Shown here: positions 46,764-56,086 of the stretch, piece after piece
Layout: each line of letters opens with the position of its first letter
How positions within the stretch are numbered: the first letter of the stretch is position 1
Origin: Acidimicrobiales bacterium mtb01
GTDB taxonomy: Bacteria > Actinomycetota > Acidimicrobiia > Acidimicrobiales > Ilumatobacteraceae
Assembly: GCA_004379135.1 (NCBI GenBank)
Contig: NBNI01000004.1
Coordinates: 124,001-188,000 of the forward strand
Direction: 5' to 3'
Length of the DNA stretch: 64,000 nt
The notes under the pieces: generated by a model
Seen by the model: the letters and a program-made list of their open reading frames with translations, nothing else
Told to the model about the DNA's origin: nothing
Databases searched by the model: none
Position numbers and translations under genes: made by a program

Positions 46764-47885
46764 TCAGCCGAGACGGAGCAGGTGGTTGCCGGGTGTGGTG
46801 AACGCGCCGCCGACCACGATTCGGCCGTCGCCGTCGAGCATGACGCTGAGAACCGCGGCGTCGAGACGTTCATTCCACTTCGCCGATGTCTTGTCATCGA
46901 TCGTCCCGTCGTCGTTCACGGCCATGAGCCAACTGTGAGGTTTCGTGAACCAACCGCCGACGACGATGCGCCCCACTTTCTCAACCGCCAGTTTCTCCAC
47001 GTAGCCGTCGAGGGTGTCGCCGACTGCGGTAGCGAACGCTCGATTGAACTCGTCGTCAGGGGTGCCGTCGGCGTCGAAACGCGCCAACGAGTTGGCCGGG
47101 GAGGTGAACTGACCGCCAATGAGGATCTGGCCCTTCGCGTCGATCTCGACCGTCGACACGTAACCGGCGACGGCACCACCGACTTGCCCGGTGAACGCGC
47201 CATCGAGCGTTCCGTCGCCATTGAATCGAACGAGCGACGGTGCTGGTGTCGTGAAGGCGCCTCCGACGACGAAGCCTCCGTCGGCGTCGACGGCCACCGA
47301 CCCGATCGGGAGGTTGACCGCGTCGCCGACGTTCGCATTGAACGCGTCATCGGGGCTGCCATCGGCCGAGAAGCGCGCGAGCGAACGACTCGGGGTGGTG
47401 AACTGGCCGCCGATCACGATGTCACCGTCGCCCAGCACATCGATGGAAACCACACCGCCGTCGATCGCGGTACCGATGGTGTCGTTGAACTCCGTATCGA
47501 GTGTGCCATCGGGGTTGAAACGGGCCAATCGGCTGCTCGGCGCGGTGAAGTAGCCGCCCACCAGGATCTTTCCGTCCGACTGCACGGCCACCGAATACAC
47601 GGCCTTGTCGATCACGGCGGCCACGTTGGCGTTGAAATCGGCATCGGGCGTTCCGTCGGATTCGAAGCGCGCGAGTGACCGACTGGGTGTCGTGAACCCG
47701 CCACCGACCAGGATCTTGCCGTCGGCTTGGATCGCGATGGCCCCCACGGTGTCGTCCAGTGCTACGCCGGCCGAGAACTCGTCATCGACGTCGAGGGAGG
47801 CGGGCGAATCACTCGATCCCGAGCAGGCAGCGAGCGTCAACAGGACCGCGGACAGAGCGAAGAATCGGCGGTGAGTTCGTTGCAT
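46764..47885 (-). CDS. Delta-60 repeat beta-propeller lipoprotein
   Basis: 373 aa. Lipobox LLTLAAC. Then seven repeats of about 49 residues with the pattern GKILVGGxFTxPxxxLARFxxDGTxDxxF, the delta-60/DUF5122 repeat, giving a seven-bladed propeller. Secreted, membrane-anchored. Role probably binding or structural; no enzyme residues can be picked. Starts at 47885 with GGGGGGAACC upstream and a TAGAGT -10 further up; divergent from the dioxygenase gene. Confidence 0.88.
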   Translation of the reverse strand: MQRTHRRFFALSAVLLTLAACSGSSDSPASLDVDDEFSAGVALDDTVGAIAIQADGKILVGGGFTTPSRSLARFESDGTPDADFNANVAAVIDKAVYSVAVQSDGKILVGGYFTAPSSRLARFNPDGTLDTEFNDTIGTAIDGGVVSIDVLGDGDIVIGGQFTTPSRSLARFSADGSPDDAFNANVGDAVNLPIGSVAVDADGGFVVGGAFTTPAPSLVRFNGDGTLDGAFTGQVGGAVAGYVSTVEIDAKGQILIGGQFTSPANSLARFDADGTPDDEFNRAFATAVGDTLDGYVEKLAVEKVGRIVVGGWFTKPHSWLMAVNDDGTIDDKTSAKWNERLDAAVLSVMLDGDGRIVVGGAFTTPGNHLLRLG

Positions 47886-47956
47886 TGGTTCCCCCCTGAA
47901 TGCTGGGCGAACTCTAACCAGGTGGCGCACGTCCTTCGTCGTGAGAGAATGCCCGA

Positions 47957-48907
47957 ATGGAGCTCGTCCCCACCGTCGACATCTCGCGCCCTTCGGCCAC
48001 CTCGCTCGCCGCACTCGACGCCGCCTGCCGCGACCACGGCTTCTTCCTGTTGGCGGGACACGGCCTCGATTCGCTGATCGAGAGGGCTTGGGACGAGACG
48101 CGACGCTTCTTCGCGGCCGATCGGTCGATCAAGACCGCGATCGTTCGCGATCAGGAGAACCCGATGGGTTACTTCGACCGCGAGCTCACCAAGCGCAAGC
48201 GCGATCACAAAGAAGTGTTCGACTTCGGCGACCCGACGCACGCGTCGATCGACCAGCGCAATCGGTGGCCCCAGGGGTTGCCCGGTTTCCGCGAGACGAT
48301 GACCGAGCTGTTCGACGAGTTGTCGGTGCTCACCGATCGAACGATGGGGCTCATCCATGATGCCTTGGGTTTGGGTGACCAATCGCGTCGCGAGGTCGCG
48401 TGCAACCGTCACGGCAGTTCCATTCGTCTGAATCACTATCCCGTCGGCGATCCGGTGCCGGAAGGCGAGCGCGATGGTCTGGCCGATCTGGGAGAGACCG
48501 CTCTCGGCTACCACACCGATCCGGGCGTGGTCACTTTGCTCCTGCAGGACGACACCGGCGGATTGCAGGCCGAGTCGCTCGATCACGGCTGGATCGACGT
48601 GCCGCCCACACCGGGCACGATCGTGGTCAACCTGGGCGACTGCATGCAGGCCTGGACCAACGATCGCTATCGCGCCGCGGTGCACCGGGTCGTGCCGATG
48701 ACCAAGCGCAGTCGCTACTCCATTCCGTACTTCTCGAATCCGGCTCGCGAAGCGATGGTGTCGCCGGTGTCCGAGTTGTGCGCCGATGGCGTGCGCTACC
48801 GACCCTTCGCGTGGCGCGAGTTCATGGCGGCGCGGGCCTACGACAACTTCACCGACCTCGGTCTGGACGACACGCAGGTGACCGACTTCCGAGTCAGTGT
48901 CTTCTGA
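47957..48907 (+). CDS. Isopenicillin N synthase-like 2OG-Fe(II) oxygenase
   Basis: 316 aa. N-terminal PTVDISRP and ACRDHGFFLLAGHG, iron site GYHTDPG (HxD) with the distal His in AAVHRVV, and the 2OG-binding R-x-S in SRYSIPYF. Cytosolic oxygenase for a small substrate, group of flavonoid/gibberellin-like and ethylene-forming enzymes. Substrate unknown. Not next to a biosynthetic cluster except the glycosyltransferase 24 bp later. Confidence 0.88.
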   Translation: MELVPTVDISRPSATSLAALDAACRDHGFFLLAGHGLDSLIERAWDETRRFFAADRSIKTAIVRDQENPMGYFDRELTKRKRDHKEVFDFGDPTHASIDQRNRWPQGLPGFRETMTELFDELSVLTDRTMGLIHDALGLGDQSRREVACNRHGSSIRLNHYPVGDPVPEGERDGLADLGETALGYHTDPGVVTLLLQDDTGGLQAESLDHGWIDVPPTPGTIVVNLGDCMQAWTNDRYRAAVHRVVPMTKRSRYSIPYFSNPAREAMVSPVSELCADGVRYRPFAWREFMAARAYDNFTDLGLDDTQVTDFRVSVF

Positions 48908-50104: not shown

Positions 50105-53100
50105 TCAGTTGTCTCCACCAGAGCCACCAGAGCCACCAGAGCCACCAGAACATCCGCTACCGGCGAGTCCGAGCGGACCGTCGTTCGCGCCGTTCGGGAG
50201 GCCCTTCGTGCCTCCGTTGCCTCCCGAGCCGCAGGCACTACCGTTGTACGAGTCACCTCCGGTACCACCGCGACCGCCGTCGCCTGCGACTGACGGGGCA
50301 CTCGCCGTGGCCGGAATGGAACCGCCGTTGCCGCCGTTGCCGCCGGCACCGCTCGCCGACGACGCTCCGTCGCCGAGGCCACCCGCACCACCGTTGCCAC
50401 CAAAACCACCAAAGGTCTGACAAGAGATGCAACTGCCGATCACGTCTCCGCCGTTGCCGCCGTTGCCGCCGACCCCCGCAGTCCCTCCGGGCCCGCTGCT
50501 TCCGCCGGGACCGCCCAAACCGCCGTCTCCGGCGTAGGACAAGGTCGTGGCAGCCGAATCGCCGCCGTCGCCGCCGTTGCCACCATCGCCCCCATTAGCG
50601 CCGAAGCCGCCGAAGCCGCCGAAGCCGCCGTCGCCGCCGTACACCTTTCCATCGACAGCCGCGTATCCAGTGGCGTCTGCGTCGCCGCCGTTTCCGCCGT
50701 CGCCGCCTCGACCGCCGTCGGTGCCGAAGCCGCCAAAGCCGCCGTTTCCGCCGTTTCCGCCGTCTCCAGCGAAGGCTTCTTGTGAGCCGCCAACAGAAGC
50801 CGTCGCGTTGCCGCCGTTTCCGCCGGCACCGCCGTCACCGATCGATCCGCCGTCTCCACCGGCACCGCCGTCGCCTGCAAAGCCGTCTTCGCTGTTTCCT
50901 CCTTGACCGCCACGTCCGCCATTTCCGTATGAGCCGGTGGGCATGGCTCCCGCGGTCCCGGTACTACCGGGACTGACGCCGGCGCCCCCCGCTCCGCCCG
51001 CACCTGGCGATCCGAGGTTTCCGCCGTTTCCGCCGTTTCCGCCGTCGCCTGCATACTGGGAAACAAATCCGTTGCCGCCGTTTCCGCCGTCGCCACCATC
51101 GCCGGGTAGGCCGGGTAGGCCGCCGTTCCCGCCATCCCCTCCAGCCAGGGCCGAGATGTGTCCTCCGCCGACTCCGCCCACTCCGCCGTTGCCACCATCT
51201 CCGCCGTCGCCGCCGAAGCCGCCTGGTGAGAGATCTACAGAAGCGTTCTGTCCGTTCGCGCCGAGACCGCCCGCGCCGCCGTTGCCCCCGGCGCCGCCGT
51301 GTCCACTGAGTCCGCTGGTTCCATTGGGTCCCGCAGCGCCTCCGACACCGCCGGTTCCGGCCAGACCGCCGTCCCCGGCAAGGCCAGGTTGGCCACCGTC
51401 GCCACCGGCGCCGCCGTCGCCACCCGATTGTCCGTCGACCCCGGCGGTCGGGCCGTCCGCGCCAGCGGCGCCATGGCCACCGTCTCCACCGTTTGCGCCA
51501 TCGCCGCCATTTCCACCGGCTCCACCACCACCGTTCGAACCGGTGCCGAGAACTGCGCCGCCGTCGCCTCCAGGTCCACCGTTGCCACCATCTCCGCCGG
51601 AACTACCCGCAGATCCAGCCGCACCTGGGAGGACTCCATCGGCACCAGAGAATCCGGCAAGGCCGTCGCCACCATTTCCGCCGTCGCCGCCGGTTCCCCC
51701 GTTGCCAGAAGTCGATCCGCCGCTGCCACCGGCGCCGCCTGCGCCGCCGCTGCCGCCGGACCTGTATGTCAGGTTGCCGTCGCCACCGTCGCCGCCTGCG
51801 CCGCCGTTGCCGCCGGAACCGGTCTCTCCACCAGCACCGCCGTTTCCACCGAACCCGCCGTATCGGCCGTTTCCACCGTCTCCGCCATCTCCGCCATCGC
51901 CAGTGCCGAGCCCCGACCCGCCCGGGCCCCCATCACCGCCGTATGACTGGAACCCTGTCGAGGTCGCATCGCCGCCGTGGCCACCGTTTCCTCCAGTGCC
52001 GGAACCACTGACAACGACTGTGCCACCGACGCCACCAGTGCCACCGAATGCCTGGGACGCTGTCGCAGTCGCATCGCCGCCGTTTCCACCGTTTCCGCCG
52101 TCGGCCCCGATTGCGGTTCCGCCAGTCCCGCCGCTTCCACCAAACGCGGTGTCGGCGGCGGCGTCGCCGCCGTGGCCGCCGTCTCCGGCCAGGCCAGACG
52201 ATGTATTGGTGAGACCGCCTGACCCGCCGTAACCGCCCTTCGCAGAGCCTCCGCCCGTGGCGTGACCCCCGTTGCCGCCGTCACCGGCCTGGCCCAAAGT
52301 CGTGGTTCCGCCGCCGCCACCCCCGCCACCGAATGCCGAAAGACCGTCAGGTGGTGCAGGGGAGAGAGTCGAGGTCGCGTCACCGCCGTCGCCGCCGTCG
52401 CCGGCCTGGCCCGAGAACGAGTAGCCGCCAGTAGCGCCCAATCCGCCGTCCGCCTCGCCATTTCCAGACGTTGCGTTGCCGCCTCGGCCACCTTGGCCAC
52501 CTTGGCCACCGTCGGCGCTTGTGTTGCCACCCACACCGCCGGGGCCTCCGGTGCTGCTGCCGTCCTGGCTGGTCGCGTTTCCGCCGTCACCGCCATCGCC
52601 GCCATTGCCCAGTGATCCACCATTGCCACCGTCGCCTCCGGGGCCACCCGTCGTGTTCGTCGATCCAGACGCCGTGTGGTTCCCGCCGTCACCGCCATCG
52701 CCTCCGTTGCCGACGGTTCCAGAGACACTGCTGCCTGCGGACCCGGCACTTCCGCTATTCGCCCCCGTTCCGGCAACGCCAGCCGCTCCAGCAAGGCCAG
52801 GATTACCGCCATCCCCACCGGCACCGCCTGGTCCACCCGGTTGTTCTCCTACGCCCGCTGAGCCGTTGCCGCCGTCGCCACCATCTCCCGGCGATCCGGC
52901 GTCTCCACCGTTGCCGGCGTCTCCACCGTCACCCTGGGTTCCGGTAGTGCCACCCAACCCACCGCTCCCGCCGACGCCGCCATCTCCGCCATCTCCGCCG
53001 TCTTGACCCATTCCGCCCGGGCCGGTGATCATGAAGCCGTCGGCTCCGTTGGCGCCGTTGCCACCGTTGCCTGCGTCTCCACCCGCGCCGCCGTCGCCCG

Positions 53101-56086
53101 ACGCGCCCGACGGACCGCCGTTGCCACCGAAGCCACCGTTGCCACCCTTGCCACCGTCTTGGCCATCCCCACCGACGCCGTTGGCTCCGTTGGCGCCGTT
53201 GCCGCCGTCGCCGCCATCTCCGCCATCTCCGTCGATACCTGACGCGCCCGAGGGACCGCCGAGACCGCCGACGCCGCCGTTGCCACCGTTCCCACCGTTG
53301 CCACCGTCTTGACCGGGGCTGACGCCGTTGGCTCCGTTGGCGCCATTGCCGCCGTCGCCGCCGTCGCCGCCATCTCCGTCGATACCTGACGCGCCCGAGG
53401 GACCGCCGAGGCCGCCGACGCCGCCGAAGCCACCGAGGCCGCCGTCGCCGCCGTCGCCGCCAGGGCTGACGCCGTTGGCTCCGTTGGCGCCGTCTCCGCC
53501 GTCGCCTGCGTTGCCACCATCGCCATCGGGGGAGTTGCCTCCGTTGCCTCCGAAGCCGCCGTCGGCACCGGGAAGCGTCGCATTGAAGCCATTGCCTCCG
53601 TTGCCGCCATCGGCAGCGGAGGCCTCCGCCCCAAGAATTCCATCCGAACCGAAGGTGGGGCCGACCCCGCCGATGCCGTTCAGGCCCGGAGTTCCCACCT
53701 CTCCGGCATCGCCGCCATCACCGCCGTCGGGAGTGACAGCACTGCCTGCCGTACCATGGCCACCACTGCCGGGCGCGCCGGCGTTGCCACCATCGCCTCC
53801 ATTTCCACCGATGCCGTCGGAGGCCGCCACTCCGGCGGCGCCGAACTGGCTTCCTCCGGTTCCCGAGGTGCCCTTGGCTCCGCCGGAACCACCGAAGCCG
53901 CCGTCGCCGCCATCACCGCCGTGGCCGCCGTCGCCGCCATTCGGAGTTGTCGATATGCCGTCGCCTCCGTTGGCGCCGTCACCACCGTTGCCACCGTTGC
54001 CACCGTTGCCACCGTTGCCACCGTTGCCACCGTTGCCGCCGGCTCCTCCGTTGCCGATCAGAGAGCCGCCGCTTCCGCCATTGCCGCCATCACCACCGCT
54101 TTGGCCGTCGGTGCCCGACTGACCACTGCCGCCGTTGGTGCCCGCGCCACCCGGTGTCACTGCGTCGTTACCGCTCGAACCCGGATAACCATCGACTCCA
54201 TTCAGGCCGACGTAACCGCTCCCGCCGGCCCCTCCGTCGCCGATCAGACCTGCGCTTCCCCCACTACCCCCATCGGGGACCGCGGCATCTCCCGCCGCGC
54301 CGTCGCCTCCGTTTCCGTACAACGTGCCGCCGTTCGTGCCGCTTGCACCCGGAGTTGCCGCATCCGTGCCGTTACCGATCACGAGAGTTGGTCCCGAGTA
54401 CAACGTGGTTAGGTTGCTCAGGCCATCCGGACCGTTGAATCCGGCACGACCAGGCTGACCGGCCTGCCCCGGAGAACCGGCGTTGGCTGTTGCCCCGGGG
54501 ACTCCCGCGGTGCCCTTGGCCCCACCGAGGCCGGCTGCGCCGGCAACGCCCGGCTGTCCGCCCGCGCCGCCCGCACCACCCGTGCCACCGAATCCGGCTG
54601 GGCCTCCCTTGCCACCGACCGCATCGAAGTACCCGTTCGCGCCCGGCCCACCGTTTCCGCCGTCGCCACCCTTGGTGCCATTTCCGCCCAGGCCACCCGA
54701 GCCAGCATCCCCGCCATTGCCGCCAAGACCGCTCCGCTTCCCACCGGCTCCGCCGACTCCACCCGATCCACCGTTTCCTCCGGGAAGGCCCGAGGCTCCC
54801 GGCCCGCCCGATCCTCCGGCGCCGCCGTTGCCAGCGGCACCGAGAACCGGGGGCAGTGTCAGATCGCCATCGAGTCCACCGTGAACCGCCAATCCACCTG
54901 GGCCGCCGTTGCCGCCGCGCTTGCCAGGAAGACCCGTACCTCCGTTGCCGCCGGCGCCACCGAAGGCGAGTCCGGTGTAGGTGGCCGCCTGGCCGCCCGA
55001 TCCACCACTTCCGCCGAACATCCCGTCGCCACCCCGAGGGGCAACCGTGGGTCCGAATGCTTGGTACGACGGAGAGCCCTGCCCTCCGTTGACCTCCCAC
55101 CACACAACAGTGGATGGAAGATCGACGGCCGTGGGTACGACGCCGGTGCCGCCTGCGCCGCCGGCGCCGCCATCACCACCGTCGCCGCCTGCGCCAGCCC
55201 ACTCGCCGCCTGCGCCTCCGGCACCGCCCTGCCCGCCGTCGCCGCCGGCTTGACCGACCGTTGACGCTGCGCCGTCGCCACCGTCACCACCGTCACCACC
55301 CGAATTCGTGCGTGCACTCGTGCCAACGTTGCCGCCGTTGCCACCATCACCAGCGTCACCACCGTTCAGATCGGCGACGCCGTCACCGCCATCACCGCCA
55401 TCACCGCCATCACCCGAAACCTCGCCGCCGTTGCCACCGTGACCACCGTCGCCGCCCTTGGCTCCGTTCCCACCGTCACCGCCATGACCATGGCGGGAGG
55501 TGCGACCACCGTCGCCGCCACGACAGGATTCGCCCGAGCATGAGGACGACGCATCGCCACCATCGCCTCCATCACCGCCGAAGAGGCCGCCATTGCCTCC
55601 ACGACCGCTGTTGAAACCGTCGCCACCGTCACCGAGGAGAAGACCTCCGTTTCCTCCGTTGCACACCGTGCCTTGAGGGCAATTCTCAGTCGAATAAGAG
55701 AAGCCCGTTCCGAAGTACAGGCCGGCGTGGGGATCGGTCGCGGTGCCGTTCTTCACCAGCTGGATGCCGTCGCAGGCTCTGACCTGTCGACGAATCTTCT
55801 TCACCACTGCATCGATGTCGATGTCTTCATCGGTGTACACCCCGGTGCCAGGGCGATGATTGCTGTGCGGTTCGAGGAACGAGATGAGTCGAATGAGGCA
55901 TCGCGCGTCCCGCGGCGAGAAGAAACTGCCCGCGGAGTTGGAACCTGAGGACGGTGAATTCGGTGTCGCGGGTGTGGCCGAGGAGTGGGACGCTCCGAGA
56001 GTCGCGGCTGCGACCAACACGGTGAAAATGAACGCCAAGGAACGAACTGCAACTCGAAGACGAGAAACGACCACCACTACCCCCAT
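50105..56086 (-). CDS. Giant secreted glycine-rich PGRS-like repeat protein
   Basis: 1993 aa. Residues about 10-37 form a Sec signal peptide (basic N-part, FIFTVLVAAATLGA core). A unique segment to residue 142 follows with Cys 63, 105, 136 and 142 and an acidic YTDEDIDID. From there to the end it is almost entirely GGN, GGD, GGA triplets, as in mycobacterial PGRS domains, and there is no PE domain, membrane anchor or sorting signal. A few Cys pairs interrupt the repeats (SSCSGESC, SCISC). The fold is probably polyglycine-II-like. Likely outside the cell, possibly an adhesin or matrix protein. The ATG lacks an evident ribosome site. Closing part ends GGSGGSGGDN. Confidence 0.85.
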   Translation of the reverse strand: MGVVVVVSRLRVAVRSLAFIFTVLVAAATLGASHSSATPATPNSPSSGSNSAGSFFSPRDARCLIRLISFLEPHSNHRPGTGVYTDEDIDIDAVVKKIRRQVRACDGIQLVKNGTATDPHAGLYFGTGFSYSTENCPQGTVCNGGNGGLLLGDGGDGFNSGRGGNGGLFGGDGGDGGDASSSCSGESCRGGDGGRTSRHGHGGDGGNGAKGGDGGHGGNGGEVSGDGGDGGDGGDGVADLNGGDAGDGGNGGNVGTSARTNSGGDGGDGGDGAASTVGQAGGDGGQGGAGGAGGEWAGAGGDGGDGGAGGAGGTGVVPTAVDLPSTVVWWEVNGGQGSPSYQAFGPTVAPRGGDGMFGGSGGSGGQAATYTGLAFGGAGGNGGTGLPGKRGGNGGPGGLAVHGGLDGDLTLPPVLGAAGNGGAGGSGGPGASGLPGGNGGSGGVGGAGGKRSGLGGNGGDAGSGGLGGNGTKGGDGGNGGPGANGYFDAVGGKGGPAGFGGTGGAGGAGGQPGVAGAAGLGGAKGTAGVPGATANAGSPGQAGQPGRAGFNGPDGLSNLTTLYSGPTLVIGNGTDAATPGASGTNGGTLYGNGGDGAAGDAAVPDGGSGGSAGLIGDGGAGGSGYVGLNGVDGYPGSSGNDAVTPGGAGTNGGSGQSGTDGQSGGDGGNGGSGGSLIGNGGAGGNGGNGGNGGNGGNGGNGGDGANGGDGISTTPNGGDGGHGGDGGDGGFGGSGGAKGTSGTGGSQFGAAGVAASDGIGGNGGDGGNAGAPGSGGHGTAGSAVTPDGGDGGDAGEVGTPGLNGIGGVGPTFGSDGILGAEASAADGGNGGNGFNATLPGADGGFGGNGGNSPDGDGGNAGDGGDGANGANGVSPGGDGGDGGLGGFGGVGGLGGPSGASGIDGDGGDGGDGGNGANGANGVSPGQDGGNGGNGGNGGVGGLGGPSGASGIDGDGGDGGDGGNGANGANGVGGDGQDGGKGGNGGFGGNGGPSGASGDGGAGGDAGNGGNGANGADGFMITGPGGMGQDGGDGGDGGVGGSGGLGGTTGTQGDGGDAGNGGDAGSPGDGGDGGNGSAGVGEQPGGPGGAGGDGGNPGLAGAAGVAGTGANSGSAGSAGSSVSGTVGNGGDGGDGGNHTASGSTNTTGGPGGDGGNGGSLGNGGDGGDGGNATSQDGSSTGGPGGVGGNTSADGGQGGQGGRGGNATSGNGEADGGLGATGGYSFSGQAGDGGDGGDATSTLSPAPPDGLSAFGGGGGGGGTTTLGQAGDGGNGGHATGGGSAKGGYGGSGGLTNTSSGLAGDGGHGGDAAADTAFGGSGGTGGTAIGADGGNGGNGGDATATASQAFGGTGGVGGTVVVSGSGTGGNGGHGGDATSTGFQSYGGDGGPGGSGLGTGDGGDGGDGGNGRYGGFGGNGGAGGETGSGGNGGAGGDGGDGNLTYRSGGSGGAGGAGGSGGSTSGNGGTGGDGGNGGDGLAGFSGADGVLPGAAGSAGSSGGDGGNGGPGGDGGAVLGTGSNGGGGAGGNGGDGANGGDGGHGAAGADGPTAGVDGQSGGDGGAGGDGGQPGLAGDGGLAGTGGVGGAAGPNGTSGLSGHGGAGGNGGAGGLGANGQNASVDLSPGGFGGDGGDGGNGGVGGVGGGHISALAGGDGGNGGLPGLPGDGGDGGNGGNGFVSQYAGDGGNGGNGGNLGSPGAGGAGGAGVSPGSTGTAGAMPTGSYGNGGRGGQGGNSEDGFAGDGGAGGDGGSIGDGGAGGNGGNATASVGGSQEAFAGDGGNGGNGGFGGFGTDGGRGGDGGNGGDADATGYAAVDGKVYGGDGGFGGFGGFGANGGDGGNGGDGGDSAATTLSYAGDGGLGGPGGSSGPGGTAGVGGNGGNGGDVIGSCISCQTFGGFGGNGGAGGLGDGASSASGAGGNGGNGGSIPATASAPSVAGDGGRGGTGGDSYNGSACGSGGNGGTKGLPNGANDGPLGLAGSGCSGGSGGSGGSGGDN
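53042..53540 (-). repeat. Tandem 49-residue blocks in the PGRS-like gene
   Basis: The sequence GGCTCCGTTGGCG recurs at 53042, 53183, 53330 and 53477: periods of 141, 147 and 147 bp (47, 49 and 49 codons). Each block reads on the minus strand NGANG, a GGxGG run, then GGPSGASG and DGGDGG. Recent in-frame duplication is the likely origin. Confidence 0.8.
53982..54035 (-). repeat. 9-bp microrepeat, six perfect copies
   Basis: CCACCGTTG repeated six times without change, coding Asn-Gly-Gly on the minus strand inside the giant gene. Slippage here changes length by whole triplets and leaves the frame intact. Confidence 0.85.

What the first reader, a model, noticed from the sequence alone, without database searches (positions are those of the whole stretch)
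50105..56086. PGRS-like giant protein outside the PE family
A single 1993-aa gene built of GGN/GGD triplets, as in mycobacterial PE_PGRS proteins, but with a Sec signal peptide and a different Cys-containing N-terminal segment (residues 38-142) in place of the PE domain. This points to PGRS-type repeats arising or spreading independently of type VII secretion in another actinobacterial lineage. It stands alone between a TPR glycosyltransferase and a TetR operon.
Basis: partly seen in the sequence, partly recalled or inferred. Interest (0 to 1): 0.82.

Follow-up and report, generated by a model that had tools for sequence, protein, structure and literature searches.

The report
PGRS protein without a PE domain
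A bacterium outside the mycobacteria carries a giant glycine-rich protein that contains the same short "cap" stretches as mycobacterial PGRS proteins but has an ordinary secretion signal instead of the PE domain, which suggests that this protein type is a portable module not tied to mycobacteria or to type VII secretion.

Summary
The ORF is real: 1993 aa, minus strand, no stop, 45% Gly after residue 140, Sec-type leader, no PE domain. The repeats are probably not an independent invention. Two non-repetitive "cap" cassettes tie it to mycobacterial PGRS proteins. Cap 1 (residues ~109-175; GTAxxPxAG..GxG[YF]..C..C.GG) opens PE-less PGRS proteins in 34 of 148 genomes of the mycobacterial genus, and in other Acidimicrobiales, Williamsia and further actinobacterial MAGs. 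Cap 2 (563-633) is a PE_PGRS-type linker (PF21526; only hit in 296 class genomes). PE was found in 0 of 114 cap-1 N-termini and 0 of 24 genus genomes; 13 of 27 mycobacterial PF21526-type pieces also gave no PE match. AlphaFold2 predicts a polyglycine-II bundle for residues ~159-294 (VIA-align Z 14.8 and 11.9 to antifreeze proteins; Foldseek TM low). Most likely it is a Sec-exported protein of two PGII "sails", each started by a cap; relatives seem to use Sec, lipobox, TM-hairpin or PE heads. PGRS domains without a clear PE are in print for M. smegmatis/Mycolicibacterium; my searches found none reported outside the genus. Surface role, age and direction of transfer are inferred.

The parts
50105..56086 (-). 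Whole gene, 1993 aa, PGRS-type protein with Sec-type leader and no PE domain
55973..56086 (-). Residues 1-38: Sec-type signal peptide (read by eye; start codon could be a nearby GTG)
55763..55921 (-). Residues 56-108: helical module between C63 and C105 (two helices in the AF2 model, low-confidence loop); a C..C pair of this spacing occurs in 14 of 116 distinct cap-1 proteins, the window's included, none of them titled Mycobacterium
55562..55762 (-). Residues 109-175: cap 1 (LVKNGTATDPHAG...GTGFSY..C136..C142.GGNGGLLLGDGGDG...), the junction shared with mycobacterial PE-less PGRS proteins
54452..55669 (-). Residues ~140-545: first glycine-rich block; residues ~159-294 of it match PGII antifreeze bundles in the AF2 model
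54188..54400 (-). Residues 563-633: cap 2, PE_PGRS-type linker (PF21526 at 54188-54379)
50105..54298 (-). Residues ~597-1993: second glycine-rich block, no C-terminal anchor seen
   Evidence: structure model of its start was poor
53113..53528 (-). 147-nt (49-aa) unit in 2.8 tandem copies, 84% matches, inside the second block

Best explanation
The gene encodes a Sec-exported PGRS protein. Its leader is removed. A disulfide-clamped helical module (C63-C105) and a disulfide-clamped cap (C136-C142) lead into a first polyglycine-II (PGII) 'sail'; an internal PE_PGRS-type cap near residue 563 starts a second, longer sail. The caps work as start modules for the PGII stack, the role proposed in print for the GRPLI linker of PE_PGRS proteins, some of which (PE_PGRS3, Wag22) are said to have two GRPLI motifs and two sails. 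The cap-plus-sail cassette is portable: relatives appear to put it behind a Sec leader, a lipobox, a TM hairpin or, in mycobacteria, a PE domain. The mature protein most likely lies on or outside the cell wall as a large flat spacer or contact surface. Shown here: ORF, no PE, conserved caps. Predicted: PGII fold of part of block 1. Read by eye: the alternative heads other than PE. Inferred: disulfides, surface location, spacer/contact role, common descent of the two cap types.
For: Junction conservation in the genus and in mycobacteria. Named organisms. PE found in 0 of 114 cap-1 N-termini, while the same scan finds PE in 14 of 27 PF21526-type pieces. Cap 2 is the only PF21526 hit at E<=1e-4 in 296 class genomes (31 bits, cut-off 27); an HMM of PE_PGRS-style linkers scores it 22.2 bits, reached by 0 of 500 and 1 of 500 shuffles. 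Profile-profile comparison with Gly columns held fixed in the controls: PE_PGRS-style caps vs PE-less mycobacterial caps 96.4 over 72 columns (best of 40 shuffles 58.7); PE_PGRS-style vs cap 1 43.5 over 40 columns (best 32.5); PE-less vs cap 1 52.8 over 39 columns (best 34.8). Intermediates such as L115 carry both the LIGNGADG opener and a Cys pair. AF2 pLDDT 86-96 by ten-residue block over window residues 96-215; VIA-align 7jjv_B Z 14.8, rmsd 1.7, 111 aligned; 2pne Z 11.9, rmsd 1.5, 78 aligned. Published PGII model and GRPLI role (PMC9436101, PMC10216338).
Against: Foldseek gave low TM scores to the same targets (0.16/0.25, rmsd 13.2). The model of the second block is poor (mean pLDDT 45.7). 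In the whole-protein Pfam scan PF21526 stays under its cut-off (23.2 vs 27). The cap-1 HMM does not pick the PE_PGRS junctions in direct scans. The profile-profile matches of cap 1 with the PE_PGRS-style and PE-less caps cover only the second half of the caps (40 and 39 columns, the GG.GG.L.GNGG part), not the GTA/Cys opener, so the link between the openers rests on intermediates aligned by eye and MAFFT. The tree of caps is largely unresolved and the window row is long. No expression, localisation or disulfide data.
Confidence: 0.66

Rival explanations
1. Convergence: low-complexity Gly-rich sequence arose on its own in this lineage, and the resemblance to PGRS is compositional, as was argued in 2006 for Nocardia and Streptomyces hits to PE/PPE proteins (PMC1660551, passages).
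For: PGII bundles exist in unrelated proteins (springtail and snow flea antifreeze proteins). Repeats align to anything Gly-rich. Cap 1 is rare: 3 of 396 phylum genomes, the window's included. One block shuffle of 500 outscored cap 2. The link of cap 1 to PE_PGRS caps covers only the GG-rich half.
Against: The part shared with mycobacterial PE-less proteins is a non-repetitive junction with two cysteines and GTAxxPxAG. Shuffles that keep every glycine lose the cap-2 signal and the profile-profile signal. PF21526 is hit only in this genome of 296 in the class.
Confidence: 0.14
2. Horizontal transfer: the cassette was made in mycobacteria and moved into a few other actinobacteria, where the PE head was never present.
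For: Very patchy distribution. Many copies in some mycobacterial genomes (up to 13), one here. Cap 2 scores about equally against PE_PGRS and PE-less mycobacterial caps.
Against: The Acidimicrobiales caps other than the window form their own group (96/92), and the C..C helical module of these and six MAG proteins is in no protein titled Mycobacterium or Mycolicibacterium. No relative among viral contigs, no plasmid match.
Confidence: 0.4
3. Membrane 'sail' as proposed for PE_PGRS: a hydrophobic edge inserts in an outer membrane.
For: Some foot-type loops are hydrophobic in the window protein (6 of 20 by my rule), about the share of mycobacterial-type Sec PGRS (120 of 372).
Against: By the same rule PE_PGRS has 30 of 56 and the non-mycobacterial relatives 12 of 126 pooled. 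No mycomembrane is expected in this family (recalled, not tested).
Confidence: 0.12
4. Ice-binding or antifreeze protein, because the fold matches springtail and snow flea antifreeze proteins.
For: Top structural matches are antifreeze proteins.
Against: Apart from these the hit lists hold only weak matches, so the match shows fold only. The protein is far larger. Ice-binding surface not tested.
Confidence: 0.05

Closest known systems
PE_PGRS proteins of slow-growing mycobacteria
   Same: PGRS block of GGX triplets; PE_PGRS-type linker (here at 563-633); two-cap layout like that printed for PE_PGRS3 and Wag22 (PMC9436101)
   Different: No PE domain, Sec-type leader, Cys-bearing first cap, no literal GRPLI, no PE match in the genus
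PGRS proteins without a clear PE in M. smegmatis and Mycolicibacterium (noted in PMC11939664, N-terminus 'questionable')
   Same: Same cap 1 and PGRS blocks in PE-less proteins of named Mycolicibacterium
   Different: Window protein has the C63..C105 helical module and lies outside the genus; I did not examine the two M. smegmatis genes themselves
Cap-1 PGRS proteins of Acidimicrobiales (L022-L025, L045, L153, L154)
   Same: C..C helical module + cap 1 + PGRS block
   Different: Heads differ, by eye: Sec-type (L023, L045), lipobox (L153, L154), N-terminal LPxTGG plus two hydrophobic segments (L022, L024, L025). In the class sample PF21526 was hit only in the window gene; I did not check that the sample holds all of these genomes
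Snow flea and springtail antifreeze proteins (2PNE, 7JJV)
   Same: Predicted PGII bundle fold
   Different: Eukaryotic, small; fold match only

Membership tests
PE_PGRS | N-terminal PE domain (PF00934) | tested here: not met
   No match at E<=0.1; 0 of 24 genus genomes; positive control 14 of 27
PE_PGRS | GRPLI-type linker opening the PGRS block | tested here: inconclusive
   PE_PGRS-type linker present inside the protein at 563-633 but without the letters GRPLI and not at the N-terminal junction; whole-protein PF21526 score 23.2 is under the cut-off of 27 while the genome search gives 31
PE_PGRS | Gly-rich PGRS block folding as PGII sandwich | tested here: met
   Composition and AF2 model of residues 56-300 with PGII matches; prediction only, for part of block 1, with low Foldseek TM
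PE_PGRS | Export by ESX-5 type VII secretion | tested here: inconclusive
   EccCa model over cut-off in 0 of 24 genus genomes; lone FHA-FtsK ATPase in this genome with no EccB/EccD/mycosin match among nine neighbouring ORFs scanned; export itself not testable
PE_PGRS | Mycomembrane location | not testable with these tools
   No localisation data
Cap-1 PE-less PGRS proteins (defined here) | GTAxxPxAG..GxG[YF] followed by two Cys and GG-rich block | tested here: met
Cap-1 PE-less PGRS proteins (defined here) | No PE domain upstream | tested here: met
   0 of 114 N-termini, up to 200 aa upstream each; 2 of 116 left out because truncated
PGII antifreeze proteins | Ice binding | not testable with these tools
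   Only fold compared

The most novel reading that the evidence does not exclude
The cap-plus-PGII-sail cassette is an old, portable actinobacterial surface module, and PE_PGRS proteins arose when a PE head was put in place of a Sec leader on a pre-existing cassette. The GRPLI linker is then a PE-specific form of a general start cap, and sails did not evolve for the mycomembrane.
Probability: 0.4. Interest if true: 0.78.

Novelty: new variant of a known kind. Interest (0 to 1): 0.62.

Why it matters
PE_PGRS proteins are described as present only in pathogenic mycobacteria (PMC10216338, abstract passage) or as having emerged in slow-growing mycobacteria (PMC7550000, abstract passage), and a 2025 review calls the N-termini of M. 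smegmatis PGRS genes questionable (PMC11939664). A PGRS protein with matching caps in a non-mycobacterial lineage, plus PE-less caps in many environmental mycobacteria, turns the origin of PGRS into a question that sequence data can answer. It also allows PGRS folding and surface behaviour to be studied in harmless bacteria and without type VII secretion.

Tried and rejected
Plasmid search with the N-terminus: no match. Viral contigs with A3: 8 pattern matches, none confirmed. NCBIfam: nothing over cut-off. PDB by sequence at 1e-10: none. The second AF2 job (window residues 550-800) gave a poor model and was not used beyond its cap, pLDDT about 70-81 by block. The direct scan of PE_PGRS proteins with the cap-1 HMM did not find their junctions; this counts against a simple homology claim and led to the profile-profile test, in which the cap-1 matches cover only the GG-rich half of the caps. 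The PE_PGRS-style set of that test holds one PE-less protein (L169), and the PE-less set holds 9 of the 12 loci L170-L181. The PF00934 search rings in the E. coli control genome over the cut-off, so single PE hits need care. G337/L029 was a match but has no recognisable cap; it is not among the matches. Genome searches score only part of the first candidates (for example 18 of 69), so counts k of n are lower bounds; each includes the window's own genome where it was in the group. Row losses: 133 loci (L022-L154) were read, 124 gave a motif-bearing ORF (128 ORFs), 116 distinct caps remained, 115 went into the tree and 114 into the PE scan (L077 and L079 left out as truncated). Of the 27 pieces, one search does not name the 14 with PE; I take them to be L155-L168 by their sequence, and L180 is a doubtful or partial frame. 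Foot-loop counts use a rule that I made after seeing sequences, on partly truncated proteins; no significance test was run. The expression misplaced the caps of L177 and L178. Foldseek TM scores are low; I weigh VIA-align more, which is a judgement.

Full report
WHAT IS THERE. Window 50105-56086 is one open frame of 1993 aa on the minus strand; the plus-strand reading of the same stretch has stops. The genome has 2,555,180 bases in 7 contigs, 97.7% complete, 0.2% contamination, and the window is G000:C5:124001-188000. The gene is 70% GC against 63-65% next to it. The leader is Sec-type by eye. The region after residue 140 is 45% Gly. It includes a 49-aa unit in 2.8 tandem copies.

WHOSE IT IS. 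The contigs G023:C42, G004:C29 and G021:C45 of the same genus have the same lengths as public contigs JAJTEQ010000056.1 (Ilumatobacteraceae bacterium), CANGIP010000029.1 (Actinobacteria bacterium) and CALPPJ020000045.1. I infer an Ilumatobacteraceae genus of Acidimicrobiales. That the large genus g80 of family f52 is Mycobacterium in the broad sense is an inference from the named Mycobacterium and Mycolicibacterium loci that carry the same kind of protein and from its PE_PGRS genes.

THE N-TERMINAL MODULE AND CAP 1. Five genus proteins share C..(about 42 aa)..C followed by LVxNGTAxxPxAGxxFGxGYxY..C....C(D/N)GGxGG; 5 of 24 genus genomes have it, the window's included. In 396 phylum genomes the only other matches were three f52 genomes, in the clear cases over the second half only (the weakest, L029, had no recognisable cap). 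Eleven of the twelve f52 ORFs printed have an N-terminal region without an obvious PE domain and then the same junction; L029 is the exception. With a 45-column junction profile, 34 of 148 genomes of that genus match, three of them with 10 or more copies, against 3 of 296 in the class and 3 of 396 in the phylum, the window's genome counted in both. The searches score only part of the first candidates, so these are lower bounds. The named-genome scan adds Acidimicrobiaceae, Williamsia, and MAGs titled Actinomycetales or Actinomycetes. All 116 distinct caps hold two or more Cys in the cap stretch, although my search expression did not ask for Cys; the seed profiles did contain them. A C..C pair at the spacing of the helical module occurs in 14 of 116: Acidimicrobiales, and MAGs titled Actinomycetales, Actinomycetes or uncultured bacterium.

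CAP 2 IS A PE_PGRS-TYPE LINKER. Pfam PF21526 touches residues 570-633 at 23.2 bits, under its cut-off. In the genome search the same stretch scores 31 bits, over the cut-off, and it is the only hit at E<=1e-4 in 296 class genomes. An HMM made from 15 RPL[IV]G[ND]G linkers (14 PE_PGRS, 1 PE-less) puts its best hit in the window protein at 569-630, 22.2 bits. When every glycine is held in place and the other residues are shuffled, 0 of 500 reach that; when GG blocks are shuffled, 1 of 500 does (25.1); the reversed protein gives 0.9. The published remark that PE_PGRS3 and Wag22 have two GRPLI motifs and two parallel sails (PMC9436101, parts 1 and 2 of 3 read) fits a second start inside this protein.

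ARE THE CAPS ONE FAMILY? Profile-profile comparison, with glycine columns fixed in the controls: PE_PGRS-style caps against PE-less mycobacterial caps 96.4 over 72 columns (40 shuffles, best 58.7); PE_PGRS-style caps against cap 1 43.5 over 40 columns (best 32.5); PE-less caps against cap 1 52.8 over 39 columns (best 34.8). The two cap-1 matches cover the GG.GG.L.GNGG...GG.GG.AG.xGNGG half, not the GTA/Cys opener. The link between the openers rests on intermediates: L115 has YLIGNGADGTAASPNGQPGGFLFGNGGKGFSWDATTCPSGSCTGGNGG, that is the PE_PGRS-style opener, a GTA-like motif and a Cys pair together, and L176 has VIGNGADGTADNPDGG. Against: the cap-1 HMM run directly on PE_PGRS proteins does not choose the junction. 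I take common descent as likely, not shown.

HEADS ARE SWAPPED. PE is found in 0 of 114 cap-1 N-termini, and in 14 of 27 mycobacterial PF21526-type pieces scanned in the same way. Of the other 13, L169 has a PE_PGRS-style GRPLVGNG linker behind a Sec-type leader; the rest were read by eye, and L180 is a doubtful or partial frame. Among the closest relatives, L023 and L045 have Sec-type leaders, L153 and L154 a lipobox-like SAC, and L022, L024, L025 an N-terminal LPxTGG followed by two hydrophobic segments (by eye). So I describe the PGRS cassette as portable and the head as variable.

FOLD. AlphaFold2 on residues 56-300 with 10 rows: mean pLDDT 78.3, pTM 0.75, 86-96 by ten-residue block for window residues 96-215, low in the module's loop and at the end. 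VIA-align puts model 104-239 on the springtail antifreeze protein (Z 14.8, rmsd 1.7, 111 aligned, 33% identity) and 145-235 on the snow flea protein (Z 11.9, rmsd 1.5, 78 aligned). Foldseek ranks the same chains first but with low TM scores. The alignment columns in the repeat were placed by MAFFT and are not reliable. The second job was poor. In print, PGRS domains are modelled as PGII sandwiches and the GRPLI residues stabilise the sail (PMC10216338, passages; PMC7550000, passages and the Evolution section).

WHAT IT DOES. A secreted, very large PGII protein with no C-terminal anchor in sight suggests a surface spacer or contact layer; the lipobox and TM-hairpin heads in relatives point to the outside of the cell. 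The 'hydrophobic foot' of the sail model is weaker outside mycobacteria by my post hoc rule: PE_PGRS 30 of 56 loops, mycobacterial-type Sec PGRS 120 of 372 (uncultured MAG proteins included), window 6 of 20, other genus members 3 of 26, Acidimicrobiaceae-type (L045, L153, L154) 2 of 31, Actinomycetales/Actinomycetes/uncultured MAGs 7 of 69. The window itself is no lower than the mycobacterial Sec set. This is in line with cells that have no mycomembrane, but it is not a test.

TYPE VII. No genus genome passes the EccCa cut-off; all 24 have partial matches, as do 8 of 14 control genomes. In this genome one is a 1312-aa FHA-FtsK protein; among nine neighbouring ORFs scanned none is EccB, EccD or a mycosin. 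Independence from type VII secretion is therefore likely, not proven.

WHAT IS IN PRINT. The listings of searches of the held library showed no report of PGRS caps outside the genus. PMC11939664 (passages and section 2.2) reports clear PGRS domains in M. smegmatis and Mycolicibacterium with a questionable N-terminus. PMC1660551 (passages) says that earlier Nocardia and Streptomyces resemblances are unspecific repeat alignments. The library lacks most subscription journals.

VERDICT. A real and well-supported PE-less PGRS protein outside the mycobacteria, a new variant of a known kind. Age and direction of spread remain open.

Noticed in passing
L022:7565-8089, L024:5972-6541, L025:12349-12903: Three genus relatives start with C.LPxTGG, a hydrophobic stretch, basic residues and a second hydrophobic stretch (by eye): a sortase-like sorting signal at the N terminus instead of the C terminus. 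Sortase (PF04203) is in 23 of 24 genus genomes.
   Followed up: partly
L043 (CALPPJ020000045.1) and L079 (CAMCWJ010000344.1): Records titled Bifidobacterium breve carry cap proteins; L043 has the length of a contig of the window's own genus and L079 groups with a mycobacterial-genus row in the tree, so the titles look wrong.
   Followed up: no
L027, L046, L054, L063, L092: Cap-1 proteins in which a short PGRS block is followed by a long part poor in Gly (15-22% Gly after the cap where printed; Big_9 in L092), like PE_PGRS proteins with enzyme tails.
   Followed up: partly
window 46764-48014 minus: Strong DUF5122 beta-propeller match (E 7.6e-48) on the strand opposite to overlapping plus-strand ORFs, close to the finding.
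   Followed up: no
window 53113-53528: 49-aa tandem unit; PMC10216338 describes a 49-residue deletion equal to three PGII helices in a PE_PGRS33 allele.
   Followed up: no
L190:6897-10835 minus (G000 contig C2): Lone FHA-FtsK ATPase of 1312 aa, near a metal P-type ATPase and an enoyl-CoA hydratase gene.
   Followed up: partly
L170-L172, L176: PE-less mycobacterial-genus PGRS proteins with a Sec-type leader followed by 'AD(F/L/V)DD' and a shared region before the cap (by eye).
   Followed up: no
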